Below, one piece after another: positions 30,387 to 64,000 of a DNA stretch of 64,000 bases; the stretch's first letter is position 1, and the number at the start of each line of letters is the position of its first letter. The notes under the pieces are model-generated. The model did not search any database. It had not been told where the DNA came from and saw only the letters and a program-made list of their open reading frames with translations. A program made the translations under genes and the position numbers. This stretch comes from Actinoplanes derwentensis (lineage in GTDB: Bacteria; Actinomycetota; Actinomycetes; Mycobacteriales; Micromonosporaceae), in contig NZ_LT629758.1 in NCBI RefSeq assembly GCF_900104725.1, positions 4,974,501 through 5,038,500 of the forward strand, read 5' to 3'.

Positions 30387-31061
30387 GTGGTCGATCGATC
30401 TTCCTACCGTGCGGGCCGCCCGGCGGAGCGGGAATCGGATTCGCTTGCGGGTCTCCGCAGAGCCCTCATCGACCTGCGCACTCTGAACCATGACCTGAGT
30501 GCGGTCAGAACCACCGCACCGGCATTCGACGGGCATGACGAGACGGGCACGGTCACCATCACCGTCAGCTCTGAGGGACTGGTCACCGACATCACTGTCG
30601 ACGCGCGCTGGCAGGCCCGCCTTCCTCGGGAGCATCTGGGCGCAGCGCTGTTCGAGGCGTATGGCAACGCCATGCACGCCACCATGTCCGCGCAACTCGA
30701 GGCGCTCGACTGGGCGGATTCCATCCGCGGGGACGACAGGATTGCCGAAGAGGTGGACGAGAGACTCCGGTTGAACCGGCGGCACTATCCCGACCTAGCG
30801 GACATGCTCGCCGATGTTCAGCACCGGCGCGACCGGTACGAGATGGCGACGCGGCACGCCGATCCACCAGCAACCGCCCCCATCCAGCGAGATACGACGA
30901 TTCGCGGGCCGATCGGGTTCTTCGAGATCACTGTCATCGGCGGCCGGATAGCCGACATTCAGGTGTTGTTGAGCCGGCTACCCCACCCGGCCACCAACGG
31001 CACCCTCGTACAGGAAGCACTGGCGGCCTTTCGCTCCGCCGCCCGAGCCGGCAGTCGGTAA
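30387..31061 (+). CDS. YbaB/EbfC-like protein of a T7SS-associated operon
   Basis: 224 residues. After a basic N terminus and a helix (LAGLRRALIDLRTLNHDLSA), a segment TGTVTITVSSEGLVTDITVD followed by LGAALFEAYGNAMHATMSAQLE has the strand-turn-strand/helix pattern of YbaB-like proteins. A second short strand module, FEITVIGGRIADIQVL, follows near the C terminus. YbaB-like genes are common companions of WXG100/T7SS genes in actinomycetes, where their role is unsettled. The GTG at 30387-30389 has GGGGAG upstream. It opens an operon with two helical proteins and a mycosin-like protein. Confidence 0.7.
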   Translation: MVDRSSYRAGRPAERESDSLAGLRRALIDLRTLNHDLSAVRTTAPAFDGHDETGTVTITVSSEGLVTDITVDARWQARLPREHLGAALFEAYGNAMHATMSAQLEALDWADSIRGDDRIAEEVDERLRLNRRHYPDLADMLADVQHRRDRYEMATRHADPPATAPIQRDTTIRGPIGFFEITVIGGRIADIQVLLSRLPHPATNGTLVQEALAAFRSAARAGSR

Positions 31062-31154
31062 TGCCAGCCCCGCATCCGAACCAGATCCGACCATCGGGTG
31101 TAGACACCCGTGACAGCGCACGGATATGTCTCGAACAGCAGCTTGGGAGGTCGG

Positions 31155-31493
31155 ATGCCTGGCGACAGTAGCGACGAGGTTCGCCTCATCGAGGACGCCC
31201 TTCTGGACGAAGCGGCCAAGTGGGATCGCCTGTCGAAGGACATGGCCGCCGTCCAGGCCGGTCTCGCCGGCCTGGAGCTCCAGACGACCGCGTTCTTCAC
31301 CAACGATCCGATGAAGGCACAGATGGCGATGGCCGCGTACGACCAGGTCTGGCGGCTCGTCACGACGCTGACTGGCGAGGCCGCCCGGGAGTTCAACCAG
31401 ATCGGCGGGGCGCTTCGCCGGGCCAACGACTTCCTGCAGACCACCGACCAGGACTCCGCCCAGGACCTTCGCGGCATCTACGGGCCGACCTGA
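31155..31493 (+). CDS. WXG100-like helical protein, possible T7SS component
   Basis: 112 residues, almost entirely helical: a first helix with DEVRLIEDALLDEAAKWDRL, a middle turn and a second long helix AYDQVWRLVTTLTGEAAREF, then NQIGGALRRANDFLQTTDQD. The size and two-helix layout match WXG100/EspC-type proteins, although no W-x-G turn is visible and the tail lacks an exact YxxxD/E signal. The ATG at 31155 was chosen because GGGAGG at 31145-31150 is ideally spaced; a GTG 45 nt upstream lacks a site. It is the second gene of the satellite T7SS operon. Confidence 0.68.
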   Translation: MPGDSSDEVRLIEDALLDEAAKWDRLSKDMAAVQAGLAGLELQTTAFFTNDPMKAQMAMAAYDQVWRLVTTLTGEAAREFNQIGGALRRANDFLQTTDQDSAQDLRGIYGPT

Positions 31494-31531
31494 GTCACGC
31501 CCTTCTCCCGGACACGAACGGAACGCAGACG

Positions 31532-32329
31532 ATGACACAGCCGCTGGAAGCACAGATCAGCGCTGCCGGGTCCGACCTGAGCGCAAGTGTGGGCCAGGCG
31601 CGGGAGAACGCGGCGACGGTCGCTACCCACCTCGACAGCCTCACCGCTGCCGTACACCTGGCTGTGGCTCAGACCCGGAATGCCGGCTGGTTCGCTCTGC
31701 CGTTCGCCGGTCCGCTCGGCCCTGGTGGCGCCTACCTGTACGGGCACAAGGTCCAGAGCACCATGGACAGGTTGCGAGAGAGCGTCCACGAGATCCTCGA
31801 TTTCGTCGAAACGGTCCTCGACGGAGCGATCCCGGTCTTCTCCCTGATCGACAGGGCGTTCGGATGGCTGAACGTCGTCCAAGCCCCGGTATCGGCGATG
31901 TCCGACACCGCCGGTCAGTACGTGATCAACCTGAACAACTGGTCCGGCAGCGCTAGGAAGGCGTACGACCAGCGCGTTCCCATCCAGGTCAAGAACATCG
32001 ACGGCTTGTCGCAAGCAGGTGGAGAGATGGCGTCCTGGCTGGGTGAGCTCGTGGCCGTCAACGCCTCCTACATCTGGATGCTCGTCAAACCTCTCTTCGA
32101 CATCGGAGGTGCGATTCTGGCGGCCGTCGCCGAGGCCGCCACTGTAGTGGGGGCGTTTCATGCCCTCGGCAAATGCGCCGAGCTGATCGAGATAGCCGTG
32201 CAGAGCATGTGGGAACAGATCGATGCGGCTCTCGCTCAATTGACCGCACTCATCAACAAGATGCTGGAAGCCAAGAAGATCACCGGATCCCTGGGGGACT
32301 CCTGGCCGGACATGGTGACGTTCGAGTGA
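31532..32329 (+). CDS. Large WXG-like T7SS-associated protein with hydrophobic segments
   Basis: 265 residues. The N-terminal ~45 residues are helical, followed by a Gly/Pro/aromatic patch and long helices. A WSG turn at residues 137-139 (LNNWSGSARKAYD) matches the W-x-G hairpin of WXG100 proteins, and the flanking helices could form that fold. Residues ~178-205 are hydrophobic (WMLVKPLFDIGGAILAAVAE) and may enter a membrane. Its last codons overlap the next gene GTG by 4 nt, so it is coupled to the mycosin-like gene. It is probably a substrate or membrane-interacting partner of the T7SS, by inference. Confidence 0.65.
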   Translation: MTQPLEAQISAAGSDLSASVGQARENAATVATHLDSLTAAVHLAVAQTRNAGWFALPFAGPLGPGGAYLYGHKVQSTMDRLRESVHEILDFVETVLDGAIPVFSLIDRAFGWLNVVQAPVSAMSDTAGQYVINLNNWSGSARKAYDQRVPIQVKNIDGLSQAGGEMASWLGELVAVNASYIWMLVKPLFDIGGAILAAVAEAATVVGAFHALGKCAELIEIAVQSMWEQIDAALAQLTALINKMLEAKKITGSLGDSWPDMVTFE

Positions 32330-33435
32330 GGGGTTCGCGAGTGCTGCTACGTAGAGCGGCTTCGTTGGTGGCTGCACTGGTCACGGCGACCAATTTGGGG
32401 GCGGCTCCCGACGAGCGGCAGTGGCACCTCGAGTCGATCAACGTTTCTGAGGCTCAGCGGGCCAGCACGGGTGACGGAGTAACCATCGGGCTGCTCACCG
32501 GTGGCCTGCCCGTCGCCCATCCCGATCTCGGCGACGCCGTCCTGCCGACGGTCCGGCGCGCCGCGGAGGACCTGTTCGGCGGTTTCGAGCAGGTCGGCGC
32601 CGACTACCCCGGGCCTGACGACTACGCGACGGGTGAGTTGGGGTTGATGGTCGCCCAAGGTGGCTCCGGGCTTCTGGGGGTCGCGCCGGGCGCCCGGGTC
32701 CAGCCGGTCATCTGCACCGGCTTGCCGGACGACACTGCGGCGTGCATCCGATGGCTGGTGGACTCGGGTGCCGATGTGATCGACCTCGCGACGGCTCCGT
32801 TCCCCCGTATCGGCAACGACTTCGAGGGCATCCGCTACGCGCTGGCTCATGACGTGGTGGTGGTCGCGGCGCTCAGCGAGGGTGCCCAGATGCCTCGCGA
32901 TGTCACGGCCGGTGTCATCCTGGTCGGCGGAGTGGACCGCAACGGGAACCTCCCACCGAACGTCCTTCCGAACGGCCGGGTCAGCATTCGCGCACCCGGC
33001 ACCGGGCCGTCCGTACAAGCCGGCGACGAGATCATCGGCTTGGTGCCCGGTGCACCGGGCGGTCACGGAACCCTGCGGTTGCCGGACGGCGACGAAGTGG
33101 CCGCCGCACTGGTCACCGGCGTGGTGGCGCTGGTCCGGTCGAAGTATCCGGAGTTGAAGGGACCATCCGTCATCAACCGGATCCTGCTCACCGCCGCTGA
33201 CCGTGACGGGCCTGGCCGGGATGGCACCTACGGATACGGGATCGTGGATGCCGCGGCCGCCGTTACCGACGACGTGCCCGAGGTGCGAGCCAACCCGTTG
33301 GGCGAGCCCGGTTCCTCGGGCGGGAACTCACTACCCGTGATCGCCGTCGCGGTCGGCGCTGTGATCCTGGCGGTCGCCGTCGTGACAGTCGTCGTCGTGG
33401 TGACAGTGCTGCGTCGGCGACGGCGGGTGGGGTGA
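32326..33435 (+). CDS. Mycosin-like S8 protein lacking the catalytic triad (pseudo-mycosin)
   Basis: 369 residues with mycosin architecture: N-terminal signal-like segment, subtilase core, C-terminal membrane helix (VIAVAVGAVILAVAVVTVVV) and a basic RRRRR tail. The fold is recognisable by WHLESINVSEAQ, GDGVTIGLL, AHPDLGD, LLGVAPGARVQPV, GADVIDLATAP and VTGVVALVRSKYPEL. The triad appears lost: the Asp of the DTG motif is Leu57, the HGT His position is Thr102, and the Ser of GTS is Glu257. The oxyanion Asn also reads Glu. Normal mycosins are essential T7SS subtilases with a structural role in complex stability, so a non-proteolytic function is plausible. GTG 32326 overlaps the previous stop by 4 nt. 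Confidence 0.82.
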   Translation: MRGSRVLLRRAASLVAALVTATNLGAAPDERQWHLESINVSEAQRASTGDGVTIGLLTGGLPVAHPDLGDAVLPTVRRAAEDLFGGFEQVGADYPGPDDYATGELGLMVAQGGSGLLGVAPGARVQPVICTGLPDDTAACIRWLVDSGADVIDLATAPFPRIGNDFEGIRYALAHDVVVVAALSEGAQMPRDVTAGVILVGGVDRNGNLPPNVLPNGRVSIRAPGTGPSVQAGDEIIGLVPGAPGGHGTLRLPDGDEVAAALVTGVVALVRSKYPELKGPSVINRILLTAADRDGPGRDGTYGYGIVDAAAAVTDDVPEVRANPLGEPGSSGGNSLPVIAVAVGAVILAVAVVTVVVVVTVLRRRRRVG

Positions 33436-33490
33436 TGATTCAGACAGCATTGCCGCCGTTTCGGGACTTTCTCCGCCGATAAGGTGGATC

Positions 33491-34987: not shown

Positions 34988-35163
34988 CCAGGCCGCCTCT
35001 TCCTTTGATGGGAACGGCCCGGCCCCGATACCGGGACGTGTCCGCGCACCGACCTTGAACGCCGCGCACCGGGACTCCGTATGGAAAGCCGGACGCCGCC
35101 GGCGAAGATCGATTGCGCTATGGTTACGAACCTTTTACATCCCGCGCCGCAAGGGGAACCATC

Positions 35164-37488
35164 ATGATCGACCTCGAGTTGATCGTCCCGGACGGCTGGG
35201 TGCAGATCCCGGCCGGCACGGACCACGACGGGGAACGCGCCCGGATCATCGACGGTCTCGTCCGCCGGCACCTGCCCGCCGGCACCGACGAGACCGGCCC
35301 CTGGCCGCGGGCGCTACGCCGCGAGATCACCGCGGCGGTGGACGAGGCGAGCCGTCACCAGGCCCGGTCGGTACTGCTGCCGATCGGGGACTTCGACGGC
35401 GTGCGACTGCCCGGTTCGCTCGTCATCGCTGTGGTGGAGGACGTCGAGGAGGGCACCGCCCCGGAGCAGTTGTTCGCGTCGGTTCTCGCCGGCGCCGGAC
35501 CGGACGGGACATACCTGGAGATCGGCGGCTCGCAAGCCATCCGCGTCTCCTCGGTGACCACCGCCGGACCTGCCGAGCGGCGGACACCTGCCCGGCAGGT
35601 CCGATACCACATCGCCCATCCCCGGGTGCCCGGCGCCTACGGTCTGGTCACCTTCACCGCGATCAGTGACGGCGACGTCGAGGCCGAACCGGTCCAGGCC
35701 GCGGTTCTGATGTTCGACGCGATCATCGGCACCCTGCGGTGGGAGGAGGAGACCGCCCCCGCGGCCCCGGTGGTCCAGGAGGCCCCCGAGGCACCGGTTG
35801 AGATCCTCGCCGAGAAGCCCACCGAGGTCATCCTGGCGACAGCGCCACCGGCACCTGCCCGGCGGTCGTTGCTGCGGCACCCGGTCACGCTCGGCGTCGT
35901 ACTGGCGCTCGCGATCATGAGCGGCACCGGAGGCCTGGTCGCACGGCACGCGGCCAGCGCCGCCGAACCGGAGGAGGGCAACCGGGCCTCCACGGCTGAC
36001 GTGCGGATCCTCGTCGGTGCGGCGTCCGTCTGCCCCGCGCTCACCGCGCCCCGGCTGGCCGGGCAGATCATGGTCGCCTCGAACTTCGGTGGCCAGCCGG
36101 TCGCCGCGATGCGGGACGGCGGCGCGACCGGGGTGGCGGCGCTGACCCCGGCCCAGTGGCAGGAGAACATCCCGTGGGACGGCGCGCAGATCACTGATCG
36201 CAAAGCCTCCGTCACCGCTCTCGCCCACCACATGTGCCGGCTCTTCGGCCAGGCCCGCATGGTCGACCTGGACGACGATCCGTGGCGGGTGGCCCTGGCG
36301 GCGCACCGGCTCGGCATGGAGCCGGTACTCGCGGCCGGCGGTGTCCCCGGCGAGGCGGACGACTATGTGCGGACCGTCGAGCGGTACGCGAACTGGTACG
36401 CACTGCAGCCGGGGTTCACCGGACATGCCGCGTCACCGGTCCCGACGGCCGCTCCCACCCCCGGTGACACGGTGGTCCCGGTGCCGGAGGCGTACGTGAC
36501 GGCGATCGCCGCGGCCGGCAAGACCTGCCCGGACATGCCGCCCGCCCGGATCGCGGCGCAGATCATGGCCACCTCCGGATTCGACCCGGACAAACTGGGC
36601 GAGGCCGGCGAGCAGGGCATCGCGCAGTTCCCGCCGACGGTGTGGGCGAGGAACGTCAAGGCCGCGCCGGGCCGGTCCCCGTGGGATCCGGACGTGGCGA
36701 TCCCGGCACTCGGCCGCACCATGTGCCGAATGATCAAGAACAACGGTGGATACGGCGCCGCCCTGGCCGCCTTCACTCGCGGCGATCGGGAGGCGTCGGT
36801 CACCGGCCTGACCGTCCGGGTGTCCGAGGCGCAGACCACGTACGCCAAGGATCTCCGTCTGCAGCCCGTCCGGCAGCCCGCGCCGAAGCCGTCCGCTTCG
36901 GCCTCCCCGTCCGCTTCCCCCTCCCCCAGCCCGACGGCGGCCCGCCCTCAGCCGACGGCCCCGGCCCGGACCAATCAGCCGGCCGTCAAGGCGGCGGGCT
37001 CGTCGGGCTCGGCCTACGGCCCGTACTTCGTCCTCAACTTCGGCACCGGGATGTGCGTCGACGTGCCCGGTTATGCCGCGGGCCCGGTGGACGGCCCGGT
37101 CCACCAGTTCCCCTGTGCCAAGACCGGTGAGGACAACCAGGAGTGGACGTTCGAGCCGCGGGCGGCCGACGCGGAGGGGTACCAGCTCTACTGGATCCGC
37201 AACGCCGACGACCGTTACTGCATCGACCCGCCGGGCACCGGCAGCGTGGATCCGGGGACATCGCTCAACGAGACGAACTGCTTCGACGCCGACAACCAGC
37301 ACTTCCGGCTGGAGCCGCGGTTGACCAGCGGCGGATTCGCCTACTACTGGCTGCGGAACACCGCGTCCGGACTCTGTCTCGACGTTCCCGGTAGCGCGGA
37401 CGCCGGCCCCGCCACCCGGCTGGCGCTGTCCCCGTGCCAGTCGAACGACGACCACGAGTGGGCGCTCGTCCAGAAGTCCGAGTGGTGA
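35164..37488 (+). CDS. Membrane protein with two transglycosylase-like domains and a C-terminal ricin-type lectin
   Basis: 774 residues. Residues 1-195 form a cytoplasmic domain seen beside actinobacterial T7SS genes but without a name I can give. A single membrane helix at ~240-262 (VTLGVVLALAIMSGTGGLVA) places the rest outside. Residues ~283-412 and ~440-565 are two related lysozyme-like/SLT modules, each with QIM..S.F and an AL/QF..(Q/V)W motif. In both, the residue matching the catalytic Glu of the VES motif is Ala or Thr. A Pro/Ser linker leads to a ricin B-type beta-trefoil (~618-774) with repeated W-type QXW-like ends. The ATG has AAGGGGA 7 nt upstream. Its stop overlaps the next GTG. 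Confidence 0.75.
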   Translation: MIDLELIVPDGWVQIPAGTDHDGERARIIDGLVRRHLPAGTDETGPWPRALRREITAAVDEASRHQARSVLLPIGDFDGVRLPGSLVIAVVEDVEEGTAPEQLFASVLAGAGPDGTYLEIGGSQAIRVSSVTTAGPAERRTPARQVRYHIAHPRVPGAYGLVTFTAISDGDVEAEPVQAAVLMFDAIIGTLRWEEETAPAAPVVQEAPEAPVEILAEKPTEVILATAPPAPARRSLLRHPVTLGVVLALAIMSGTGGLVARHAASAAEPEEGNRASTADVRILVGAASVCPALTAPRLAGQIMVASNFGGQPVAAMRDGGATGVAALTPAQWQENIPWDGAQITDRKASVTALAHHMCRLFGQARMVDLDDDPWRVALAAHRLGMEPVLAAGGVPGEADDYVRTVERYANWYALQPGFTGHAASPVPTAAPTPGDTVVPVPEAYVTAIAAAGKTCPDMPPARIAAQIMATSGFDPDKLGEAGEQGIAQFPPTVWARNVKAAPGRSPWDPDVAIPALGRTMCRMIKNNGGYGAALAAFTRGDREASVTGLTVRVSEAQTTYAKDLRLQPVRQPAPKPSASASPSASPSPSPTAARPQPTAPARTNQPAVKAAGSSGSAYGPYFVLNFGTGMCVDVPGYAAGPVDGPVHQFPCAKTGEDNQEWTFEPRAADAEGYQLYWIRNADDRYCIDPPGTGSVDPGTSLNETNCFDADNQHFRLEPRLTSGGFAYYWLRNTASGLCLDVPGSADAGPATRLALSPCQSNDDHEWALVQKSEW

Positions 37489-38813
37489 GGGCGATGCCGG
37501 CAACCGCCCTGCGCGCCGTCGCGCTGGCCCTCGCCGCGGTCGCGGTGACCGCCACCGGAACCGCCCTGCCTGCCCGGGCCGAGCCGGGCACGGACGCCGC
37601 GCCGAACCGGTACTACTACACCGTCGGCAAGGGGGCGCCGGAGAACCTGTGGGAGATCGCGGAACGCTTCCTGGGTGACCCGGAACGGGCCGGCGAGATC
37701 CTCGATCTCAACGCCGGCCGGGTACAGCCCGACGGCGGCCGGCTCGTCAGCCCCGACGACCTCACCGGAGGCTGGCATCTCGTGCTGCCCGGGGACGCGA
37801 TCGGAGCGGAACTCCAGCACGGTCCGCTGCCGGCCGGCCGGACCCGCCCGTCGAAGTGCCAGTGGGGCGCCACGCCGCCGGCCGCCGCGACGTGGGGGCA
37901 GACCCTGCTCACACCCAGCGGGGCATGGACGGTGGCGGACGGCTCCGGCGTCAAGGTGGCGATCGTGGGCTCCGGCGTCGACGGCTCCGCCACCGGGCTG
38001 ACCGGCCGGGTCCTCGCCGGCACGGACGTCACCTCCGGCACCGGCCGCGGCGACGACAGTTGCGCCGGCTCCGGGACTGCCCTGGCCGGCATCGTGGCCG
38101 GTGACGACGGCGACGAGGGGCGGTCGTTCGGGGTGGCGCCGGGTGCGAGGATCGTGCCCGTCAAGGCGGGGACCGGCAAACCCACGGCGGGTGTCGCGGC
38201 GACCGCCATCCGGGTGGCGGCGGCCTCCGGCGCCGGGGTCGTGCTGATCGGGGCCGACGTCGACGCCACCGACCCGCAGGTCGGCACCGCCATCAACAAG
38301 GCGATCGCCGCCGACGTGGTGGTCGTGCTACCCGCTACCGCCGCTGCCGGGGCAGCCGACGGCCTGCTCCGGGTGGGCGCGGCGGGCCGGGACGGGCAGC
38401 CGGCCGGGAACACCGCACCGGACGCCGCGGATCTGCTGGCGCCCGGCGACGAGGTGGCCAGCATCGGCCGGGCCGGCAGCGGTCCCGCGTACGCCGCCGC
38501 CTTCGTGGCCGGCACGATCACTCTGGTCCGTTCGGCCGACCCGGGGTTGCCCGCCACCGAGGTCACCCGGCGGGTGCTCGCGACGGCAGTCGACGGCGTG
38601 GTCAGCCCGGTCGCCGCGGTCACCACGCCGCAGTCCGCTGAACCGGCGGCCGCCGCCGGCTCGGCGCCGGAGCCACGGAACGGTCTCGGCACCCTGAGCA
38701 CCGTGCTGATCGGGATAGCGGCCGGGTTGATCGTGCTCCTGTCGGTGCTGCTCGTCTCACGCCGGTGGCAGCGACGCCGGGCCCCGATGCCGCCGCCGGG
38801 ACAGGCGGGCTGA
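37485..38813 (+). CDS. Second mycosin-like S8 protein lacking the catalytic triad, with LysM-like N-terminal region
   Basis: 442 residues. A signal peptide (ATALRAVALALAAVAVTATG...ARA) is followed by a ~60-residue region RYYYTVGKGAPENLWEIAER that resembles a LysM motif. The subtilase core then carries GVKVAIVGSGVD, GSGTALAGIVAG, FGVAPGARIVPVK and AYAAAFVAGTITLVRSADP, and a C-terminal membrane helix (LSTVLIGIAAGLIVLLSVLL) precedes a basic tail. Compared with active mycosins the Asp is Gly162, the His is Ser196 and the Ser is Ala335, so the triad is missing although the folds around it are conserved. GTG 37485 overlaps the transglycosylase-like gene stop; ATG 37494 is an alternative start. Confidence 0.82.
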   Translation: MRAMPATALRAVALALAAVAVTATGTALPARAEPGTDAAPNRYYYTVGKGAPENLWEIAERFLGDPERAGEILDLNAGRVQPDGGRLVSPDDLTGGWHLVLPGDAIGAELQHGPLPAGRTRPSKCQWGATPPAAATWGQTLLTPSGAWTVADGSGVKVAIVGSGVDGSATGLTGRVLAGTDVTSGTGRGDDSCAGSGTALAGIVAGDDGDEGRSFGVAPGARIVPVKAGTGKPTAGVAATAIRVAAASGAGVVLIGADVDATDPQVGTAINKAIAADVVVVLPATAAAGAADGLLRVGAAGRDGQPAGNTAPDAADLLAPGDEVASIGRAGSGPAYAAAFVAGTITLVRSADPGLPATEVTRRVLATAVDGVVSPVAAVTTPQSAEPAAAAGSAPEPRNGLGTLSTVLIGIAAGLIVLLSVLLVSRRWQRRRAPMPPPGQAG

Positions 38814-38815
38814 TG

Positions 38816-39317: not shown

Positions 39318-39358
39318 TTGACCAGATTACATCGTTCGGCTAATAATTCAGCCGAACG
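39318..39358 (+). promoter_or_regulatory. Promoter of the SARP gene pair with a perfect 9-bp inverted repeat
   Basis: TTGACC (39318-39323), 17 bp, TAATAA (39341-39346) is the best -35/-10 pair in the window. The -10 lies in the loop of a perfect inverted repeat CGTTCGGCT-N8-AGCCGAACG (39333-39341 and 39350-39358). A second TTGACT occurs 42 bp downstream of the first (39360-39365). A regulator bound at the repeat would block RNA polymerase. Confidence 0.65.
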
Positions 39359-39398
39359 GTTGACTAAACGTCTAGCACAAGATACAGCGAGGACGCGT

Positions 39399-46705: not shown

Positions 46706-46741
46706 AGCCACCTCCGTCACTCAATGTGGGCGTTGGAAGTG

Positions 46742-50507: not shown

Positions 50508-50511
50508 GGCG

Positions 50512-54626: not shown

Positions 54627-56036
54627 CTACCCGAACAATCCGCGGGCCCAGGTGTAGAGCCCGAGCACCTGCGCGAGCACCGGGAGCACGACCAGCCCGG
54701 TGGCGACGTCCAGACCGGTGGCCGTGTACTCCCAGAACGGCAGCATGCGTCGCGGCCACGGCCGCAGCGCCGCCATCACCAGCGGGATCAGCAGCGCGAC
54801 GAGGCCGCCGAGCAGCACGTACCGGCCGGAGGCGCCGAACATGTCGGAGAACTTGAGGACCACCATGAGGTAGCCGACGGTACCGGCCAGCACCAGGGCG
54901 ATCCGCTGCCAGAGACCGAAGAAGGTACGCGAGCGCAGCAGGATTGCACTTGAGGTCATCAGCACCAGGGTCCATCCCGACCAGCCCGGGACCGCCATGG
55001 TGAAGTGCATCAGGAACGGCAGGACCAGCGCGGAGGAGACCATGCAGACGGTCAGGTAGGTGTCCGCGTCGTTGGCTCGCGTACGGACCAGGTCGGAGTC
55101 CTCCGGCTCGATGTCGTACGACATGTCCGCGCCCGTCTTGGGCAACTGCGGACCCCGCAGCCGGGAGAACTTCACCGCCGCCCGGGGCGCGAGCACGACC
55201 ATCGTCAGGATCAGGGTGACGGCCGTGGCCGAGACCCCGGGAGCGGTCATCTCCGCGATGTCGCGGGTCACCAGGACGAGGACCGCGATCACGGCCGTCA
55301 CGCCGCCGGCCAGCAACGGCGCGAACGGGATCACCGGCGTGACCGTACGCTGCATGACCAGCAGGAACGCGAACACCGCACCGACCGCGACCGCCGCCGC
55401 CAACAGGGCCGGGCCGTTCAGCGAGACCCCGTCCGGATCACCGTCGACCGCGCTGGACGCGCTGACCGCGGCGAAGAACGCCGCACCACCACCGAACAGC
55501 AACGGGAACGCGCTGTCGTTCTGCCGGAGAGCGCTGATCACCGCGGCGACGAGCAGGCCCACCGCGAGCACGCCGCCGACGATCACCTGGGGCAGCACCG
55601 GGCCCTTGTCGACCAGGACGGCCGCGAGCGCGCCCATCGCCACCAGGGAAAGCACCAGGAACAACACCCGGCGGTACTCCGGCAGCCACCGGTCCCCGCG
55701 CCGGTTGACCATCGTGGCGACGCCCTCGGCGAGGTCGTCGAAGGCGAGTTCCGGCAGCGGGTCCTCGGTGGGACGCAGGTGCAGTTCCTCGCCTTCCAGC
55801 CAGTCCAGGCTCTCCGGCGTGCCGGCGAACTCGAACGGCGCCTGGCCGAGACGCTGCAGCACCCACGACTCGTCGGGGACGTCACCGTCCGGAACCCGGC
55901 TGAGGTTGGTGGTGTGCCGCACCAGCATCGGCATCAGGTTGCCGACCGGCATCCGCATCGGCACGGCCAGGTCGACCTTGCGCTCCGGCCCGATCACGGT
56001 GATGCGGCACAGTTGCTCGTTCAATGCGGTACTCAC
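54627..56036 (-). CDS. eccD: EccD, multi-spanning T7SS channel component
   Basis: 469 residues. The first ~90 form the ubiquitin-like domain of EccD (LCRITVIGPERKVDLAVPMR ... WVLQRLGQAPFE), followed by about 11 hydrophobic helices, for example RVLFLVLSLVAMGALAAVLV and YVLLGGLVALLIPLVMAAL. The short cytoplasmic loop between the domain and the first helix contains LRPTEDPLPELAFDDLAEGV, a conserved EccD contact region. EccD dimers form the membrane cavity of the ESX core complex with EccB and EccC. It lies between eccB and eccC in the usual neighbourhood, 34 bp downstream of eccC. No eccE is seen in the window. Confidence 0.92.
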   Translation of the reverse strand: MSTALNEQLCRITVIGPERKVDLAVPMRMPVGNLMPMLVRHTTNLSRVPDGDVPDESWVLQRLGQAPFEFAGTPESLDWLEGEELHLRPTEDPLPELAFDDLAEGVATMVNRRGDRWLPEYRRVLFLVLSLVAMGALAAVLVDKGPVLPQVIVGGVLAVGLLVAAVISALRQNDSAFPLLFGGGAAFFAAVSASSAVDGDPDGVSLNGPALLAAAVAVGAVFAFLLVMQRTVTPVIPFAPLLAGGVTAVIAVLVLVTRDIAEMTAPGVSATAVTLILTMVVLAPRAAVKFSRLRGPQLPKTGADMSYDIEPEDSDLVRTRANDADTYLTVCMVSSALVLPFLMHFTMAVPGWSGWTLVLMTSSAILLRSRTFFGLWQRIALVLAGTVGYLMVVLKFSDMFGASGRYVLLGGLVALLIPLVMAALRPWPRRMLPFWEYTATGLDVATGLVVLPVLAQVLGLYTWARGLFG

Positions 56037-56070
56037 CAGTGAGCCTTTCTCAGGGGACCGTGTCCGGCTC

Positions 56071-59000
56071 TCACAGGGCCGGGTCCGATACGAAACCGGT
56101 CTGCATCAGGCGCACACCGCGGCGGGTCACCAACTGCGCACGTCCCGGCGGAAGCTGCCGGGGTTTCGCCTCACCGAGGAACTTGCCCTCCTCCTTGGGG
56201 TAGGAGAAGAGCATCGCGGGGGTGCCCAGCTCCCACATCCGCCGGATGACCGGGTCCATCATCGCCCGCATCGCACCGGAGGTGCTCCGCGCGACGATCA
56301 GGTGCAGGCCGATGTACGTGCCCTGGGCCAGCAGCGGGAGCACCGGGTCGAGTGCCGAGCCCATGCCGGTGCCCTTCGCCATCAGGTCGTAGTCGTCGAC
56401 GATGACGAAGAGTTCCGGGCCCTCCCACCAGTCCCGTTTGCGCATCCGGTCCGAGGAGATCTCCGCACCGGGCATGCGCTTGTTCATCGAGACCGAGGTC
56501 TGGCCGGCGAGTTCGTACATCTTGTCGCCAGTGAAGGCGAAGCCCACCTGGTAGGCGGCGTCGATCGCGGTGTCCAGGTCACGACGGGAGTCACCGAGCA
56601 CGACCTTGGCCTGGTCGGGCTGGTAGCGCTGCTGGATGGCCCGCAGAACGAGACGGAGCATGTTGGTCTTGCCGGTCTCGCTGTCCCCGAAGACCAGCAT
56701 GTGCGGCGTGACCATGAAGTCGTGCCAGACCGGGGCGAGCCGCTGCTCGTCCTGGCCGATGACCACCTTGAACTCCGGTTCCGGCAACGGCAGTTGCTCG
56801 ACCATGAGGTGCGCCGGGAGCATCCGCACCGGCGGCGCGGCCGGGCCGGGCCAGAAGGTGCCGATCTCCTCGACCACGGCCTTGGTCGCCTCGGCCAGGT
56901 CGTTCACGTCGGAACTGCCGTCCATCCGCGGCAGGGCGGCGAGGAAGTGCAGCGCGCCGTCGGTCAGACCACGGCCGACCTGGTTCGGCACGGTCTGAGC
57001 CTTGCGGTTGCCGTGTTCCGACTCCATGGCGTCGCCGAGCCGCAGCTCCAGCTTGGTGCCGAGCAGGTCCCGCATCCAGGTGCGCATCTCCGACCAGCGG
57101 GTGGCGGTGACGATCACGTGCACGCCGAACGACAGGCCGCGGGAGGCGAGCTCCTGGAACTTCTGCTCCAGCTCCTGGAAGTCCTGTTTCATCGTGTACC
57201 AGCCGTCGATGACCAGGAAGACGTGCCCGAAGTTGTCCTCGATCACGCCCTCGGCCACCCGGGTGAGGTAGGTCGCCATCGAGTCGAGTCCGTGGCTGGC
57301 GAACTCGGCCTCGCGCCGCTCCATGACCTGAAGGACCTCTTCGACCGTACGGACCACCCGGTCGCGCTCCATCCGGGTCGCCACCGAGCCGACGTGCGGC
57401 AGCCCGGAGATCGAGGCGAGGCCGCCACCGCCGAAGTCCAGCCCGTAGAACTGGACCTCCCGCGGCGTGTTCGCCAGCGACAGCGCCAGGATCAGGCTGC
57501 GCAGCAGGGTGGACTTGCCGCTCTGCGGGGCGCCGGCGATACCGACGTGCCCGTCGGCGCCGTTCAGGTCGACCACCAGTAGTTCCCGCAACTGTTCGGC
57601 GGGCCGGTCGACGATACCGACCGGGACCCGGAGACCACCCCGGACGTACGGGTCGTCGATGGTCATGCCGCGATCCGGATCGGGCACCACGCTCGGCAGC
57701 AGTGAGTCCAGGCTGGGGGCGCTGGACAGTGGTGGCAGCCAGACCTGGCGGGCCGGCGGGCCCGATCCGGCGAGCCGGTCCAGCAGCACCTCGACCAGGC
57801 TCGGCCCGTCGGCGGTCGTGGGGGTCTCCTCCGCGGCCTGCTCCGGGCGTTCCGGACCGGGGTCGTGCCGGACGGCGACCTGCCGGGTGGTGAACGGCAC
57901 CACGTCGGCGGGCAGATCGTCGACGGTCTCGACACTGCCGGCCTTGCGGCCGCTGCCGGTGTACGACCCGGAGACGTACGCCGCCTTGAAACGTACGAGA
58001 TTAGTGGTGTCGATCTTGAGGAAGCCGTTTCCGGGCTCCGGCGGCAGCTCGTAGGCCGCACCCACCCCGATCACGGACCGGGATTCCATCGACGAGAAGG
58101 TCCGCAGGGCCAGCCGGTAGGACAGGTGGCCCTCGACCCGGTTGATCCGGCCCTCGTCGAGACGCTGCGAGGCCAGCAACAGGTGGACACCGAGCGACCG
58201 GCCCAGACGCCCGATGGAGACGAACAGGTCCATGAACTCGGCCTTGCTCGACAGCAGCTCGGAGAACTCGTCGACGATGATCAGCAGCACCGGGAACGGC
58301 ACGAGCTGCGCGCCGTTGCCACGCGCCTTCTCGTAGTCGAACAGCGACGCGTAACCGCTGGCCCGCAGCATCTCCTGACGCCGGGTCATCTCACCGTTGA
58401 GCGCGTCCTGCATGCGGTCGACCAGCGGCAGTTCGTCGGCCAGGTTGGTGATGACCGCCGAGGTGTGCGGCAGCTTCTCCATGCCGATGAATGTCGCGCC
58501 GCCCTTGAAGTCGACGAGCACCAGGTTGAGGATCTCCGAGCTGTGCGTCGCGGCCAGACCGCACACGAGCGTACGGAGCAACTCCGACTTGCCGGAACCC
58601 GTGGCGCCGATGAGCAGACCGTGTGGTCCCATGCCGCCCTGCGCCGACTCCTTGAGGTCGAGTTCGATGACCTCGCGCTCCTCGGTCACGCCGATCGGCA
58701 CCATCAGACGGTTGCGCTGCGGGGTCCGGGTCCGCCACAGCGCCTGCACGTCGAAGGTCATCGCGTCCCGGATGCCGAGCAGCGTGGTCAGTTCGAAGCT
58801 GGTCTCCAGCGGTTCGTCGGAGACCTCCAGCGTGCCGCTGGTCCGCTTCGGGGCGATGATCCGGGCCAGGGCCTCGCACTGGACGTCGTCCAGGCTGTCC
58901 CGCTGCGCCGAACCGGTGGCGGCACCGGCCGGGAACTCCACCACGTCGTCCTTGACCGTGAGCCGCAGAACCTTGGGGCCACCGGGCATCGCACCGGTGA

Positions 59001-60030
59001 GATCGAGCAGGACCGTGTTACGGATGCCCGCGCCGAGCAGGCGAGAGCTGTCCGGCAGGTCGACCAGGTGGGCGATGATCACGACAAGCGGCTCGGCCGA
59101 CGTCGACCGCACGTTCTTGTCGTGATCGCCGCGGTCGGTGACGTCGGGCCCCAGCATGTCCATCAGCGCTTCGTGGGTGCCGGCGAACATCCGCACCGGC
59201 CCGGCGGCGTCGAACGCGGTCGGGTGCGCGTTGTGCGGCAGCCACTTGATCCACTCCCAGGGGCCGCGGTGGACCTCCGCGGCGAGCACCGCGATCCGCA
59301 GTTCGTCCGGGGCGTGGAAGGTGGCGAGCTGGGCCACCATGGCCCGGGCCAGATCGATGGCCGGGTCGATGGCACCCTCGAACTCGACGCTGGTGAAACT
59401 GGTCAGGCCGACCGAGGTCGGAATTCCGGAGACCGTCTGGTACGCCTCGGAGAAGCGCCGCAGCGAGATCGAGGAGAGTGGTTCGAGATCCTCGATCGGC
59501 TTGGTGGACGGCGGGTTGAACTTCAGCATCGCCTTCTGCCGGCCCAGTCCGATCCGCACCCGGCCGAAGTCCTCGTGGCTGGACCGACGCTCCCAGAGCC
59601 GGCTGCCCATCGCGACGGACCAGAGCCAGCTCGGCTGCGGGTTGTTCCACAGCACGAACCTGCGCTGCTGGTCGGCGGCCTCCCGGGCCTGCTTGCGCAA
59701 CTGGCCGATGTACCGCAGGAAGTCCCGGCGCTCGCCCCGCATCTTGCGCTTACGCTCGGCGGCCGCCCGGCCGATCTGCATGACACCCATGAGCAGCATG
59801 CCACCGGCCATGGCGCCACCCATGACGTACATCATCGGGGTGCGGTTGTAGAGGCCGAACATGGCCAGCATCGCGCCCATGCCGAGGCCCATCGGCACGA
59901 CCATCGCGAACGAGCGGAAGTCGAGCGGGGCCTCCTCCGCCATCAGCGGGGGCTCCTGCAACTCGATGGAGCCTTCCGGCGCCTCGGGGCCCTGCGCACG
60001 GGGCGGACGTTTGATCGTGACAGTACTCAT
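56071..60030 (-). CDS. eccC: EccC, FtsK/SpoIIIE-type T7SS motor ATPase
   Basis: 1319 residues in one chain, so all parts of EccCa and EccCb are fused. Two membrane helices (~43-60 and ~68-85) precede a stalk and domain of unknown function. Three P-loop modules follow: Walker A GATGSGKS at ~475-482 with Walker B LLIIVDEFSEL (~582-592); GAPQSGKS at ~833-840 with VFLVIDGW (~937-944); GDSETGKT at ~1115-1122 with LFVIVDDYD (~1207-1215). The first module looks catalytically complete; the second lacks a catalytic Glu as is usual for EccC. ATG 60028-60030 overlaps the small-protein stop by 4 nt. It powers substrate export and recognises C-terminal signals. Confidence 0.95.
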   Translation of the reverse strand: MSTVTIKRPPRAQGPEAPEGSIELQEPPLMAEEAPLDFRSFAMVVPMGLGMGAMLAMFGLYNRTPMMYVMGGAMAGGMLLMGVMQIGRAAAERKRKMRGERRDFLRYIGQLRKQAREAADQQRRFVLWNNPQPSWLWSVAMGSRLWERRSSHEDFGRVRIGLGRQKAMLKFNPPSTKPIEDLEPLSSISLRRFSEAYQTVSGIPTSVGLTSFTSVEFEGAIDPAIDLARAMVAQLATFHAPDELRIAVLAAEVHRGPWEWIKWLPHNAHPTAFDAAGPVRMFAGTHEALMDMLGPDVTDRGDHDKNVRSTSAEPLVVIIAHLVDLPDSSRLLGAGIRNTVLLDLTGAMPGGPKVLRLTVKDDVVEFPAGAATGSAQRDSLDDVQCEALARIIAPKRTSGTLEVSDEPLETSFELTTLLGIRDAMTFDVQALWRTRTPQRNRLMVPIGVTEEREVIELDLKESAQGGMGPHGLLIGATGSGKSELLRTLVCGLAATHSSEILNLVLVDFKGGATFIGMEKLPHTSAVITNLADELPLVDRMQDALNGEMTRRQEMLRASGYASLFDYEKARGNGAQLVPFPVLLIIVDEFSELLSSKAEFMDLFVSIGRLGRSLGVHLLLASQRLDEGRINRVEGHLSYRLALRTFSSMESRSVIGVGAAYELPPEPGNGFLKIDTTNLVRFKAAYVSGSYTGSGRKAGSVETVDDLPADVVPFTTRQVAVRHDPGPERPEQAAEETPTTADGPSLVEVLLDRLAGSGPPARQVWLPPLSSAPSLDSLLPSVVPDPDRGMTIDDPYVRGGLRVPVGIVDRPAEQLRELLVVDLNGADGHVGIAGAPQSGKSTLLRSLILALSLANTPREVQFYGLDFGGGGLASISGLPHVGSVATRMERDRVVRTVEEVLQVMERREAEFASHGLDSMATYLTRVAEGVIEDNFGHVFLVIDGWYTMKQDFQELEQKFQELASRGLSFGVHVIVTATRWSEMRTWMRDLLGTKLELRLGDAMESEHGNRKAQTVPNQVGRGLTDGALHFLAALPRMDGSSDVNDLAEATKAVVEEIGTFWPGPAAPPVRMLPAHLMVEQLPLPEPEFKVVIGQDEQRLAPVWHDFMVTPHMLVFGDSETGKTNMLRLVLRAIQQRYQPDQAKVVLGDSRRDLDTAIDAAYQVGFAFTGDKMYELAGQTSVSMNKRMPGAEISSDRMRKRDWWEGPELFVIVDDYDLMAKGTGMGSALDPVLPLLAQGTYIGLHLIVARSTSGAMRAMMDPVIRRMWELGTPAMLFSYPKEEGKFLGEAKPRQLPPGRAQLVTRRGVRLMQTGFVSDPAL

Positions 60031-60425
60031 CCGAGCATCCCCGACTCGTCGTCGTTACCGCCCCAGGCGGTGTTCTCCTGGCGGAGCAGCTTCACCGAGT
60101 AGCGGTCGTTGCGGTACCGCTCGGTCACCTTGACGTCGTCGTCCTCCTCGGCCTGCCGCTTCTTCTCCTTGGCCCGGGCCTCTTCCTCCTCCTTGCGGAG
60201 ACGGTCCTGCTCGTCCCAGTACGCCTTCGCCCGCGCGGCCTGTTCCTCTTCGTCCTTCGCGAGCGACTTCGTGAACTCGGCGTCGCTGACCCCCTCCTCA
60301 CCGCAGGGACGCATCTTGTCCAGGTCGGCGCTGAAGAAGTCGGGCACACCACCGGCCGACGGGGCCGCCTTCGGCGGAATCACCCGCCGCCATACGGCAC
60401 GAGGAGGTTGCGGGGTCTCGGACAT
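60027..60425 (-). CDS. Small highly charged T7SS-locus protein
   Basis: 132 residues. A central coiled-coil-like Glu/Lys/Arg-rich stretch (EEEARAKEKKRQAEEDDD region) follows a Pro-rich N terminus. The C-terminal end carries LLRQENTAWGG, a motif also found as LLREDDTTWGG near the end of the adjacent repeat protein. The ATG 60423-60425 has AAGGGTGAC upstream and is 2 bp after the repeat-protein stop; its own stop overlaps eccC by 4 nt. No family name is recognised. Position and motif suggest a chaperone, adapter or substrate for EccC, by inference. Confidence 0.7.
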   Translation of the reverse strand: MSETPQPPRAVWRRVIPPKAAPSAGGVPDFFSADLDKMRPCGEEGVSDAEFTKSLAKDEEEQAARAKAYWDEQDRLRKEEEEARAKEKKRQAEEDDDVKVTERYRNDRYSVKLLRQENTAWGGNDDESGMLG

Positions 60426-60427
60426 CG

Positions 60428-63400
60428 TCACCCTTCCGTACCGTCGTCGGACGGTTTGCCGCCGGTCAGCCAATCCGCGTCGCCGGCGTCGTCCCAGCCC
60501 GACATGTCGTCGGGTTCGTCATCCGGCCGGACCAGTGGCACGTGGTCGTCCACCGGCCGCCGCGCAGTGCCATCACCACCTGGGGTGGTGCCGTCACCAC
60601 CCCAGGTGGTGTCGTCCTCGCGCAACAGCTCGGCGGAACCGGAACGCTCCCCGGTCTCGTCGTCCTCGGCACCGTCGGACCGCCGGGGTCCAGCACTTCT
60701 CCGGTCGTCGCCGTCCGTGATGGCACCCGCTCGGCCGAGCCCCGCGGCCAAGCCGACCCCGGCCACGCCACCAGCACCCGCCGCGATGGTGCCCACTCCG
60801 GGCACGACCACGACGACCTCCTCGGCCTTGGCCGCCACGGGCTTCTTCGGCACCGTGTCGGCCGGGACGGCGGGGCCCGCGCCGGACGGCTGACTCGACT
60901 GCCCGGCCGGTCCGGCCTGGCCCGACGAAGTTGTCTGGCCCGGCGAGGCTGGCTGACCCGGCGGCGCCGACGGGCTCGCTTGGCCCACCGGCACCTGTCC
61001 GGCCTGCCCAGGGGCACCGATGAGCACCGGGGTGGCCGGGGATCCACCGACGACCGGCGTCTCGGTGATCGGCGTCTCGGTGATCGTCTCGCCTTCGGCG
61101 GGTGCCCCCGGACCGCCGACGACGGGCGTGCCCGGAAGGTCCACCGCGGTGGGCAGCTCGACCGCCACCGGCGGAACGATCACCTCGACCGGAGGCGGCG
61201 GGCCCACCGGCGGTACCGTCGCCTCGGGCACGTTGGGCACGGTCACTTCCGGCGCAGTGACATCAGGAACGATCACCGCCGCCACGTCGGGCACGGTCAC
61301 TTCCACATCAGGAACAGTCACCACCGACACGCTGGGCACGGTCACTTCCGGCACGGTTACGTCAGGAACGGTCACCGCGGGCACGGTCGTGTCCGGGGCG
61401 TGGGCTCCGGGAGGAGTACCGGCATCCGGGATCTCCACGGCCGGGGATTCCGTGACCGGGACTTCCATTTCCGGCGTCACGGCGGCCGGGACGTCCGGGG
61501 CCCCGATGTCGGGCACGCCGAGATCCGGCCGGTAGTCCACCGGCACGCTCAGATCCGGCACGCTCAGATCCGGGATCGTCACTGCGGAAACCGGGGGCGG
61601 TGTGGCCTCGAAGCCCGCGCCACCGGCCGTGACTCCGCCGGAGGAGTCCGGCGTGTGGTCCACCGGGCCCGAACCGGACCAACCCGTCTGGTCCTGCTCC
61701 ACGAGAGCGGAGGCGTCGGTGGCGCCCCCCGGTGCAGCGTCCCCGGGCGCGTTGCTGCCCGGCATGCCGGGCATGGGCGGCGGCATCCCACCGGCTCCGG
61801 TAGAGGCCGGGACGGCGGGGGCCGGGATGGCCGTCCCGCCACCGGCCGCCGGGGCTTCCCAATCGGGTACGCCGACCGGGGCAGGCGTCTCGACCGAGGT
61901 CCCCGCACCCAGCGATCCGGTGTCCGGGGCGATCCAGCCCGGTGTCTCCAGACCCGCACCGCCCGCACCGGCACCGGTGGGTGCCTCCGGGGTGCCCGCG
62001 CCCAGGTTCCCGGACGGCTTCCAGTCACCGGCGTCCGCGCCGATCAGCCCGGAGGCATCCGGGGAGTCCGGGACGCCTCCGCCCGGGGTTCCGCCACCCG
62101 GGGCGCCCGGCGAGCCAGGCATCATCGGCATGCCCGAGCTGGGCAGTCCCGCGCCCGGTCCGGTCGTACCCGGTGTGGTCTGCGTGCCCGGTGTGGTCTC
62201 GACGACCGGGAGATCCGGCAACCGCGGCGCGGTGGCCCCGTCGAAGCCGCCACCGCCGGGAACCGCACCGCCGGACCCGTTCGGGATTCCCACGTCCGGC
62301 ACGAGCTGCTGCCAGTCGGAGCCGTCGCCTTCGACGAGCCCCTTCGAGTCCGGGGCGTCGGGGAGACCGGTGCCACCTCCGGCTCCGGCACCGGGAGCGC
62401 CGCCACCGGGCATACCCGGCATCATCGGCGACTGGAGACCACCACTACCCGGCACCGCACCCGACGACGAACCCGGCCCCTCGACGGCTCCCAGCGACGG
62501 GGACTGCCAGTCCGAGCCGTCACCTTCCACGAGCCCCTTCGAGTCCGGGGCCTCCGGCACACCCGAACCACCACCGGCACCCCCACCGGGGGCACCACCA
62601 CCGGGCATACCCGGCATCATCGGCTGCTGGAGACCACCACTACCCGGCACCGCACCCGACGACGAGCCCGGCCCTTCGACACCACCGAACGACGGCGACT
62701 TCCAATCGGTCGCATCGCCTTCCACAAGCCCCTTCGAATCGGGAGCCTCCGGCACACCGGCACCACCGCCGGCACCCCCACCGGGAGCACCACCACCGGG
62801 CATACCCGGCATCATCGGCTGCTGGAGACCACCACTACCCGGCACCGCACCCGACGACGAACCGGGCACATCCACACCACCGAACGACGGCGACTTCCAA
62901 TCGGTCGCATCGCCCTCGACAAGGCCCTTCGAATCCGGGGCCTCCGGCACACCCGAACCACCACCGGCACCCCCACCGGGAGCACCACCACCGGGCATAC
63001 CCGGCATCATCGGCTGCTGGAATCCGCTGCCGCCGGTGCCCGGCGAGGCGCCGCCCGGCGAGTTCGGGATGTCCACGCCGGTGAATCCACCGGGCTTGAA
63101 GTCATCGTTGTCGCCGAGCAGGCCGTTCGCGTCGGGCTTCTCGGGGAGGCCGACACCGCCGCCCGCGCCCGCGCCACCGCCACCGGCTCCGGGTGAACCC
63201 ATGCCGGGGATGCTCGGCGGGTTGAAGCCGGTTCCCCCTCCGGTGCCACCGCCGCCTGGAGTCCGACCGCCCAGCTCGCCGGGACCGGTGACCGTCGGTG
63301 GCCGTACCGAGTTGCCGCCACCGGCGCCGTTGCTGTTGCCGCCTCCGGTGCCACCGGCCGGGGCTTTGATCACTGGGGGGATGACGGCGGCGGCGTTACC

Positions 63401-64000
63401 GGATCCGCCACCGGCACCGCCCGGCGGGTTGATCACCGGGGCTTCGAAGCCCGGCAGGCCGGCTCCGGTTCCGCCACCGGCACCGCCGGTACCGCCGGGC
63501 GTGCGGCCGCCGACCTCCCCCGGGCCGTTGAACGCCGGCGGGTTGACGGCGGAGTTGGCACCACCGGGTCCACTGATGTTCGGGCTGTTGAAAGCGGGGG
63601 TGGTGACGCTCGCGAAGTTGCCGGAGCCGGGGCCGGAGCTGTTGAACGCCGGTGTGGTGACGTTGCCCGGCCCGCCCTTGAGGGCGGGGGTGGTGATGCT
63701 GTTGAGGTTCGGCGTCGTGATGTTCGGCACCGTGATGTTCGACGGCGCGGTGATCACCGGTGTGGTGACCCCCTTGATGTTGGGGGTGGTGAACACCGGT
63801 GTCGTGAGCGTCTGCGTCGTGAAGGCCACGGTGGTGAGGTTCATCGTCGTGGTCTTCGGCATGGTCGGCGTGGTGATGGCCGACGTGGGCATGGTGACCC
63901 CGGACGTGCCCGCCTTGTCGGTGGTCATCTTGTACTGGGTGGCCACCGTGTCGACGACCTGCGCCATCTGTTCGGCCATCGGCTTCTCGTACTCGGTGCC
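60428..64000 (-). CDS. Giant Pro/Gly/Thr-rich T7SS-associated protein with 65-residue tandem repeats (N terminus outside window)
   Basis: At least 1190 residues, open to the right edge, where GTEYEKP precedes the first Met. A helical region (MAEQMAQVVDTVATQYKMTTD) may be the end of a WXG100 domain. Then come TTP(x) repeats (~30-130), Gly-rich stretches, a block of ~65-residue repeats (~323-700) with the core PDSKGLVEGD..DW, VP(D/E)VTVP repeats (~880-970), and a C-terminal hydrophobic glycine zipper (VVVVVPGVGTIAAGAGG). The last ~70 residues are acidic and carry LLREDDTTWGGD. It is likely an exported or surface-exposed substrate; the hydrophobic tail could anchor it. It starts the visible T7SS operon. 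Confidence 0.75.
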   Translation of the reverse strand, partial: GTEYEKPMAEQMAQVVDTVATQYKMTTDKAGTSGVTMPTSAITTPTMPKTTTMNLTTVAFTTQTLTTPVFTTPNIKGVTTPVITAPSNITVPNITTPNLNSITTPALKGGPGNVTTPAFNSSGPGSGNFASVTTPAFNSPNISGPGGANSAVNPPAFNGPGEVGGRTPGGTGGAGGGTGAGLPGFEAPVINPPGGAGGGSGNAAAVIPPVIKAPAGGTGGGNSNGAGGGNSVRPPTVTGPGELGGRTPGGGGTGGGTGFNPPSIPGMGSPGAGGGGAGAGGGVGLPEKPDANGLLGDNDDFKPGGFTGVDIPNSPGGASPGTGGSGFQQPMMPGMPGGGAPGGGAGGGSGVPEAPDSKGLVEGDATDWKSPSFGGVDVPGSSSGAVPGSGGLQQPMMPGMPGGGAPGGGAGGGAGVPEAPDSKGLVEGDATDWKSPSFGGVEGPGSSSGAVPGSGGLQQPMMPGMPGGGAPGGGAGGGSGVPEAPDSKGLVEGDGSDWQSPSLGAVEGPGSSSGAVPGSGGLQSPMMPGMPGGGAPGAGAGGGTGLPDAPDSKGLVEGDGSDWQQLVPDVGIPNGSGGAVPGGGGFDGATAPRLPDLPVVETTPGTQTTPGTTGPGAGLPSSGMPMMPGSPGAPGGGTPGGGVPDSPDASGLIGADAGDWKPSGNLGAGTPEAPTGAGAGGAGLETPGWIAPDTGSLGAGTSVETPAPVGVPDWEAPAAGGGTAIPAPAVPASTGAGGMPPPMPGMPGSNAPGDAAPGGATDASALVEQDQTGWSGSGPVDHTPDSSGGVTAGGAGFEATPPPVSAVTIPDLSVPDLSVPVDYRPDLGVPDIGAPDVPAAVTPEMEVPVTESPAVEIPDAGTPPGAHAPDTTVPAVTVPDVTVPEVTVPSVSVVTVPDVEVTVPDVAAVIVPDVTAPEVTVPNVPEATVPPVGPPPPVEVIVPPVAVELPTAVDLPGTPVVGGPGAPAEGETITETPITETPVVGGSPATPVLIGAPGQAGQVPVGQASPSAPPGQPASPGQTTSSGQAGPAGQSSQPSGAGPAVPADTVPKKPVAAKAEEVVVVVPGVGTIAAGAGGVAGVGLAAGLGRAGAITDGDDRRSAGPRRSDGAEDDETGERSGSAELLREDDTTWGGDGTTPGGDGTARRPVDDHVPLVRPDDEPDDMSGWDDAGDADWLTGGKPSDDGTEG
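60574..60611. repeat. Perfect 17-bp inverted repeat with nested 7-bp stems
   Basis: CACCACCTGGGGTGGTG (60574-60590) is followed after CCGT by its exact reverse complement (60595-60611). Each arm is itself a 7-bp palindrome around a 3-nt centre, so two small hairpins or one large cruciform are possible. It lies inside the 3' coding region of the repeat-rich gene, ~150 bp before its stop. Confidence 0.7.
62231..63010. repeat. Four tandem 195-bp coding repeats (65 residues each)
   Basis: Units end at 63010, 62815, 62620 and 62425 (minus-strand starts), spaced exactly 195 bp. Units 1-3 are nearly identical and begin MMPGMPGGGAPGGG; the fourth is one codon shorter and degenerate. More divergent copies flank the block on both sides. 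Recombination between units would change protein length in 65-residue steps. Confidence 0.85.

What the first reader, a model, noticed from the sequence alone, without database searches (positions are those of the whole stretch)
30387..64000. A T7SS locus rich in pseudoenzymes: possible undescribed variant system
In about 34 kb there are two pseudo-mycosins, two pseudo-transglycosylase domains, two ART-like domains lacking ExE, a degenerate second AAA module and a receiver without Asp, alongside a seemingly active EccC and EccD. Genes for eccE, active MycP and small EsxA/B are not seen. The shared loss of catalytic residues suggests a system in which enzymatic folds are reused as structure or sensors. 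Whether it secretes at all is open.
Basis: inference. Interest (0 to 1): 0.8.

Follow-up and report, generated by a model that had tools for sequence, protein, structure and literature searches.

The report
Secretion system with dead-enzyme parts
A soil bacterium's type VII secretion gene cluster, shared with many relatives, carries several proteins that look like enzymes but have lost their active sites, next to one gigantic protein that the system probably exports, which suggests that old enzyme folds were kept as structural or binding parts.

Summary
The pseudoenzyme list is largely real and conserved, not decay. Both subtilases (32173-33435, 37434-38813) lack the whole triad; the second belongs to a family where 81 of 82 homologues lack catalytic His and Ser. 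Both LT-like domains lack Glu; AAA2 lacks the Walker Lys (12 of 12); both ART-like domains have Arg at the ExE Glu (17 of 17). The "receiver without Asp" rests on reading alone.

The Esx pair is not missing: it lies 1.7 kb past the window, beside a 10,450-codon frame (68132-99484). Esx, eccC, eccD, eccB, ART-like protein, beta-helix-AAA and giant gene recur in Actinoplanes, Micromonospora, Jidongwangia and Nucisporomicrobium and at a second locus here; the eccC-to-AAA order also on Streptomyces linear plasmids. Their EccCs form one clade. No eccE lies at the locus.

Best reading: an EccE-less T7SSa lineage exporting a giant polymorphic-toxin-like protein, with a dead caspase/ART-like adaptor beside an EccA-like AAA and, in some members, a dead mycosin in the envelope. 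Secretion is untested. eccB is frameshifted in this assembly, intact in 11 of 11 relatives. Such giants were described in 2012; I found no description of the cluster or of the dead mycosin family.

The parts
32173..33435 (+). mycA, pseudo-mycosin, triad T/Y/E, C-terminal TM-like segment; no ortholog at the 11 other loci
   Evidence: TIGR03921 107.9 bits, cut-off 278.75
30387..32329 (+). YbaB-like gene (weak Pfam match) and two small helical-looking genes just upstream of mycA; link to the T7SS uncertain
35113..37488 (+). membrane protein with two LT-like domains lacking Glu and a ricin-type lectin domain
37434..38813 (+). mycB, pseudo-mycosin with LysM-like N-terminal part, subtilase fold, C-terminal helix; triad G/S/A
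39318..43606 (+). two overlapping SARP/STAND-type regulators
   Evidence: Pfam BTAD, AAA_16; conserved beside the core in several relatives
43612..46074 (-). ART1: caspase-like N-terminal domain, proline-rich linker, pseudo-ART domain
46082..46720 (-). LuxR-type regulator; N-terminal part not recognised as a receiver by Pfam
47202..50567 (-). beta-helix plus EccA/SpoVK-like AAA, second AAA degenerate
50512..53256 (-). ART2: same architecture as ART1; overlaps the AAA gene
53266..54402 (-). eccB, periplasmic part (second frame of the broken gene)
   Evidence: TIGR03919 194.1 bits, cut-off 154; dN/dS 0.22-0.26
54399..54620 (-). eccB, N-terminal part with TM segment (first frame)
   Evidence: Pfam EccB; one continuous frame in 11 of 11 other copies
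54627..56036 (-). eccD
   Evidence: TIGR03920 191.6 bits, cut-off 94.95
56071..60030 (-). eccC, single chain with EccCa and EccCb parts
   Evidence: TIGR03924 922.5 and TIGR03925 842.4 bits, above cut-offs
60027..60473 (-). 148-aa gene of unknown function, conserved in part of the relatives
60428..64000 (-). Pro/Gly-rich 1397-aa frame with a conserved N-terminal part (continues to 64621 outside the window)

Best explanation
This is one side of a conserved gene cluster for a T7SSa-type machine (EccB, EccC, EccD, Esx pair; no EccE and no catalytic mycosin in the cluster) dedicated to exporting a giant multidomain protein of about 3,500-10,500 aa encoded next to the Esx pair. Proposed mechanism: EccC ATPase1 drives export. 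The Esx pair, the YbaB-like protein and the WXG100-like head of the giant provide targeting. The cytosolic pseudo-caspase/pseudo-ART proteins (ART2, ART1) work with the beta-helix/EccA-like AAA as a cargo adaptor or unfolding complex, binding peptides or cargo domains rather than modifying them. On the outside, in the members that have it, the dead mycosin mycB with its dead LT-lectin partner stabilises the channel or anchors it to the wall without cutting substrate. Shown: gene content, conservation, lost catalytic residues, purifying selection, retained folds. Inferred: every binding and transport step.
For: Esx pair, YbaB gene, T7SS-associated protein NF033532 and the giant frame adjoin the ecc genes. 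eccC/eccD/eccB/ART2/AAA present at 11 of 11 other loci and Esx pair, YbaB and giant head at 10 of 10 that reach far enough. Complete giant frames of 3467-10450 aa in 9 clusters. EccCs of ART-linked clusters are one clade, 17 rows against 5 others, support 100. ART2 overlaps the AAA gene, and in one Streptomyces plasmid of five both form a single 2152-codon frame. Closest solved ART relative, XopAI, is reported not to bind NAD+ but to hold an Arg peptide (PMC6829252, abstract). Dead mycosins: 81 of 82, subtilase fold kept. Mycosin works structurally without catalysis in mycobacteria (PMC5082899, PMC8131196, passages).
Against: No secretion data. eccB is broken in this assembly. mycB stands close to the core only in the window, G001 and G002 (about 17 kb from eccC); in G003, G005 and G006 it is 26-58 kb away or more, one G006 copy has an in-frame stop and the other lies beside a different EccC; none was found near G007, G008, G009 or the paralogous locus. 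mycB relatives also stand at T7SS loci of another EccC type (5.99 Mb). The caspase link of ART1/2 is weak: 51 columns only, and the reverse profile search does not find the giants above chance. One Streptomyces plasmid has the ART-like gene without ecc neighbours within 12 kb.
Confidence: 0.5

Rival explanations
1. The core T7SS uses an intact mycosin from another ESX locus, and mycA/mycB/LT form a separate envelope module (lectin and LysM-like wall binding, shared by several T7SS types) that is not needed for export of the giant.
For: Intact S8 proteins at 5.99, 7.80 and 8.055 Mb; no mycB near 4 of 10 loci with long flanks; mycB/LT pair beside another EccC type at 5.99 Mb.
Against: mycB and LT are adjacent to the cluster in the window, G001 and G002; mycosins are thought to serve their own system (PMC5082899, passages).
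Confidence: 0.3
2. ART1/ART2 are immunity or decoy proteins that protect the producer from caspase- and ART-type domains of giant proteins, and not part of the export machine.
For: Dead versions of toxin-type domains beside a toxin-like giant; N-terminal resemblance to the giant's caspase-like repeats.
Against: ART2 sits inside the ecc operon, overlaps the AAA gene and is fused to it in one plasmid; no ART domain was found in the giants with the ART profile.
Confidence: 0.15
3. The locus is a decaying T7SS.
For: Frameshift in eccB; other ESX loci in the genome.
Against: dN/dS 0.04-0.47 for all pairs tested, also after the eccB break; the same dead sites across genera; a 10,450-codon open frame beside it.
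Confidence: 0.05

Closest known systems
T7SSa / ESX systems (EccB, EccC, EccD, MycP, mostly EccE)
   Same: EccB, EccC, EccD score above NCBIfam cut-offs; Esx pair; EccA-like AAA; EccC nearest in the PDB to 4nh0 (recalled as Thermomonospora curvata EccC)
   Different: No EccE or catalytic mycosin at the locus; extra pseudo-caspase/pseudo-ART protein and beta-helix fused to the AAA; giant partner gene
Mycosin MycP (TIGR03921)
   Same: Homologous (108 and 110 bits), subtilase fold, C-terminal membrane helix
   Different: Below the 278.75-bit cut-off; triad lost; LysM-like N-terminal part in mycB
Giant actinobacterial polymorphic toxins (for example SACTE_5178, 13,652 aa; PMC3482391, passages)
   Same: Size, WXG-like head, HExxH motifs, caspase-like repeats of which one here lacks Cys
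   Different: The paper's passages that I saw do not tie them to this ecc operon
XopAI (PDB 6k93/6k94)
   Same: Best match by profile and fold; altered ART active site
   Different: Injected effector; here a domain encoded in a secretion operon

Membership tests
T7SSa | EccB, EccC, EccD | tested here: met
   eccB in two frames in this assembly
T7SSa | WXG100 Esx pair | tested here: met
   (just outside the window)
T7SSa | MycP protease with catalytic triad at the locus | tested here: not met
   both S8 proteins lack D/H/S
T7SSa | EccE (absent in some ESX-4 variants, PMC11217815 passage) | tested here: not met
   one EccE in the genome, at 5.83 Mb
T7SSa | EccA | tested here: inconclusive
   TIGR03922 281.4 bits, cut-off 466.65; beta-helix N-terminal part
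T7SSa | secretes Esx proteins | not testable with these tools
   no experiment
Mycosin (TIGR03921) | score over curated cut-off and catalytic triad | tested here: not met
   works-like claim rests on fold and published structural role
ADP-ribosyltransferase, R-S-E type | catalytic ExE Glu | tested here: not met
   Arg in 17 of 17; in Streptomyces relatives Arg in 5 of 6, Val in 1
ADP-ribosyltransferase, R-S-E type | ART fold | tested here: met
SLT transglycosylase | SLT profile match and catalytic Glu | tested here: not met
   no Pfam SLT hit, Glu absent
Giant T7SS polymorphic toxin | WXG-type head | tested here: inconclusive
   WXG100_2 22.3 bits, cut-off 27
Giant T7SS polymorphic toxin | toxic activity | not testable with these tools
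   no experiment
Two-component receiver | receiver profile and phospho-Asp | tested here: inconclusive
   no Pfam receiver hit; Asp place by reading only

The most novel reading that the evidence does not exclude
A T7SS lineage in which the mycosin has become a permanently dead structural protein, and in which cargo is recognised by an adaptor assembled from dead copies of the cargo's own kinds of domain (caspase-like, ART), coupled to an EccA-like unfoldase, to move single chains of up to 10,000 residues.
Probability: 0.2. Interest if true: 0.85.

Novelty: new variant of a known kind. Interest (0 to 1): 0.6.

Why it matters
Why mycosin is essential when its protease activity is dispensable has been studied with engineered mutants. 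Here nature has made the dead version many times over: 81 homologue clusters, several of them named mycosin or S8 peptidase by their sources, lack catalytic His and Ser. If MycB still holds a T7SS together, the structural role can be tested in non-pathogenic actinomycetes. The cluster also ties giant actinobacterial proteins to one recognisable secretion lineage, which makes their export directly testable.

Tried and rejected
Decay: disfavoured. Universal pseudo-mycosin cap: rejected, on the same contig at 6 of 10 loci with long flanks and close to the core only in 3. ART domains in the giants: not found with the ART profile. Reverse check of the caspase link: the profile of the ART1/2 N-terminal domain does not find the giants above chance, and in the forward ranking 20 ART1/2-like frames stand right after 8 giant frames, but one ART1 frame (L012) falls below the first unrelated frame and the paralogous locus's ART2 only comes at rank 67. 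PDB and Pfam on the giant: only weak hits. The ART2 model is poor outside the ART domain (mean pLDDT 60.8), so its N-terminal fold is untested. In the mycB search only the 7992 candidates sharing most words were scored. Seven partial or odd rows of 59 were dropped before the S8 tree; it needs 3 losses, of which well supported branches force 2, and mycA's place on a long branch is unsure. Starts of relatives' genes were taken as the first start in the frame, so lengths may be too long. Only 9 of 12 EccC rows were given to the motif check.

Full report
Setting. The window is bases 4974501-5038500 of a one-contig genome of 10.65 Mb, which has 7 YukD/EccD matches and 16 WXG100 matches, so several T7SS loci. 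The finding's right edge is only the window edge. Beyond it lie the end of the 1397-aa Pro/Gly-rich frame (60428-64621), a 283-aa gene (64692-65543), two Esx genes (65680-65982, 66022-66507), then divergently a YbaB gene (66525-67028), a 360-aa gene (67025-68107), a 10,450-codon open frame (68132-99484) and a T7SS-associated protein of NCBIfam NF033532 (99716-100312, 175.9 bits, cut-off 85).

Observation. The triad losses, LT Glu losses, ART Glu loss and AAA2 Walker loss hold. The LT assignment is indirect: Pfam finds no SLT domain in 35113-37488, but it matches at 39% over 92 residues a protein with a Pfam SLT domain that keeps the Glu. The receiver claim is inconclusive: no receiver profile match; by ungapped reading the Asp place is A, S or C in 10 of 10, with Asp two residues later in 4 and Glu in 6. 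EccC ATPase1 is intact in the 9 rows checked. eccE is absent from the locus; G000 has one, at 5.83 Mb, and G008, which has the same cluster, has none at E 1e-3 (150 of 171 candidates scored).

Conservation. A search with ART2 gave 10 loci in Actinoplanes, Micromonospora, Jidongwangia and Nucisporomicrobium, and a second locus lies at 2.67 Mb of the same genome. eccC (79-95% identical), eccD, eccB, ART2 and the beta-helix AAA are present at 11 of 11. The Esx pair, the 283-aa gene, YbaB, the 360-aa gene and the head of the giant are present at 10 of 10 that reach far enough; L012 does not. Complete giant frames in aa: 10450 (here), 10332 (paralogous locus), 9376, 8484, 7909, 7563, 6676, 4583, 3467; G001 has runs of N and G004 ends early. 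Of 81 genomes of the family, 9 have strong ART2 hits (over 430 bits) and 9 more only distant ones. On Streptomyces linear plasmids eccC (about 61-62% identical), eccD, eccB, an ART-like gene and the beta-helix AAA stand in the same order at 5 of 6 loci looked at; the sixth has the ART-like gene alone. The residue at the ART Glu place is Arg in those 5 and Val in the sixth. In one plasmid the ART and AAA genes form a single frame of 2152 codons. EccCs of these clusters form one clade of 17 rows against 5 other EccCs; the loci were chosen by ART2 and EccC similarity, so co-occurrence counts depend on that choice.

ART proteins. Profile and fold agree on an ART domain nearest to XopAI, described as unable to bind NAD+ and able to hold an Arg peptide (PMC6829252, abstract). 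The N-terminal domain resembles the giant's caspase-like repeats: the repeat profile lists 20 ART1/2-like frames right after 8 giant frames among 4373, and hhalign gives 95.5 over 51 columns, with at most 20 for five unrelated control profiles and at most 1 for four other parts of ART1/2. The reverse search fails, so this is a lead. The Cys-bearing strand is kept in 11 of 11 ART2 and 4 of 6 ART1 rows (read); no counterpart of the His was aligned. Of four caspase-like repeats found in this giant, three keep the Cys and one has Ser.

Reading. EccB/EccC/EccD/Esx place the machine in the T7SSa lineage; EccE and a catalytic mycosin are missing from the locus. MycP works structurally without catalysis in mycobacteria (PMC5082899, PMC8131196, passages), so a dead mycosin is a plausible cap where present, while an intact mycosin in trans stays open, above all at loci without mycB. 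ART2 lies in the ecc operon, overlaps the AAA gene and is fused to it once, which fits an adaptor working with the AAA. Giant actinobacterial proteins of this sort, and caspase repeats without catalytic residues, were described in 2012 (PMC3482391, passages). Garrett and others (PMC11217815, abstract and passages) name T7SSc to T7SSj; no passage that I saw fits this cluster.

Limits. No transport was shown. Whether the eccB break is real or a sequencing fault cannot be told here.

Noticed in passing
68132-99484, right of the window (L008, L009): 10,450-codon open frame with near-identical internal copies (for example residues 2073-2300 and 3944-4171, 97%), two HEVMH motifs and caspase-like repeats.
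   Followed up: partly
G000:C1:2640001-2720000 (L074-L077): Second copy of the cluster in the same genome with its own 10,332-aa frame.
   Followed up: partly
54399-54620 and 53266-54402: eccB split by a frameshift at a run of G; 11 of 11 other copies are one frame.
   Followed up: partly
L138:26635-33090: ART-like and beta-helix AAA genes in one open frame in a Streptomyces nigrescens plasmid.
   Followed up: partly
G000:C1:5850405-5851931 (L083): Another triad-less S8 protein (A/L/A) near the eccE-bearing ESX locus, with orthologs in G001 and G002.
   Followed up: no
G003 joined stretch, about 70.0-70.7 kb: The giant of this relative ends in what reads like YD/RHS repeats.
   Followed up: no
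33491-34987: TauE-type transporter and cupin genes between mycA and the LT gene, no evident link to the T7SS.
   Followed up: no
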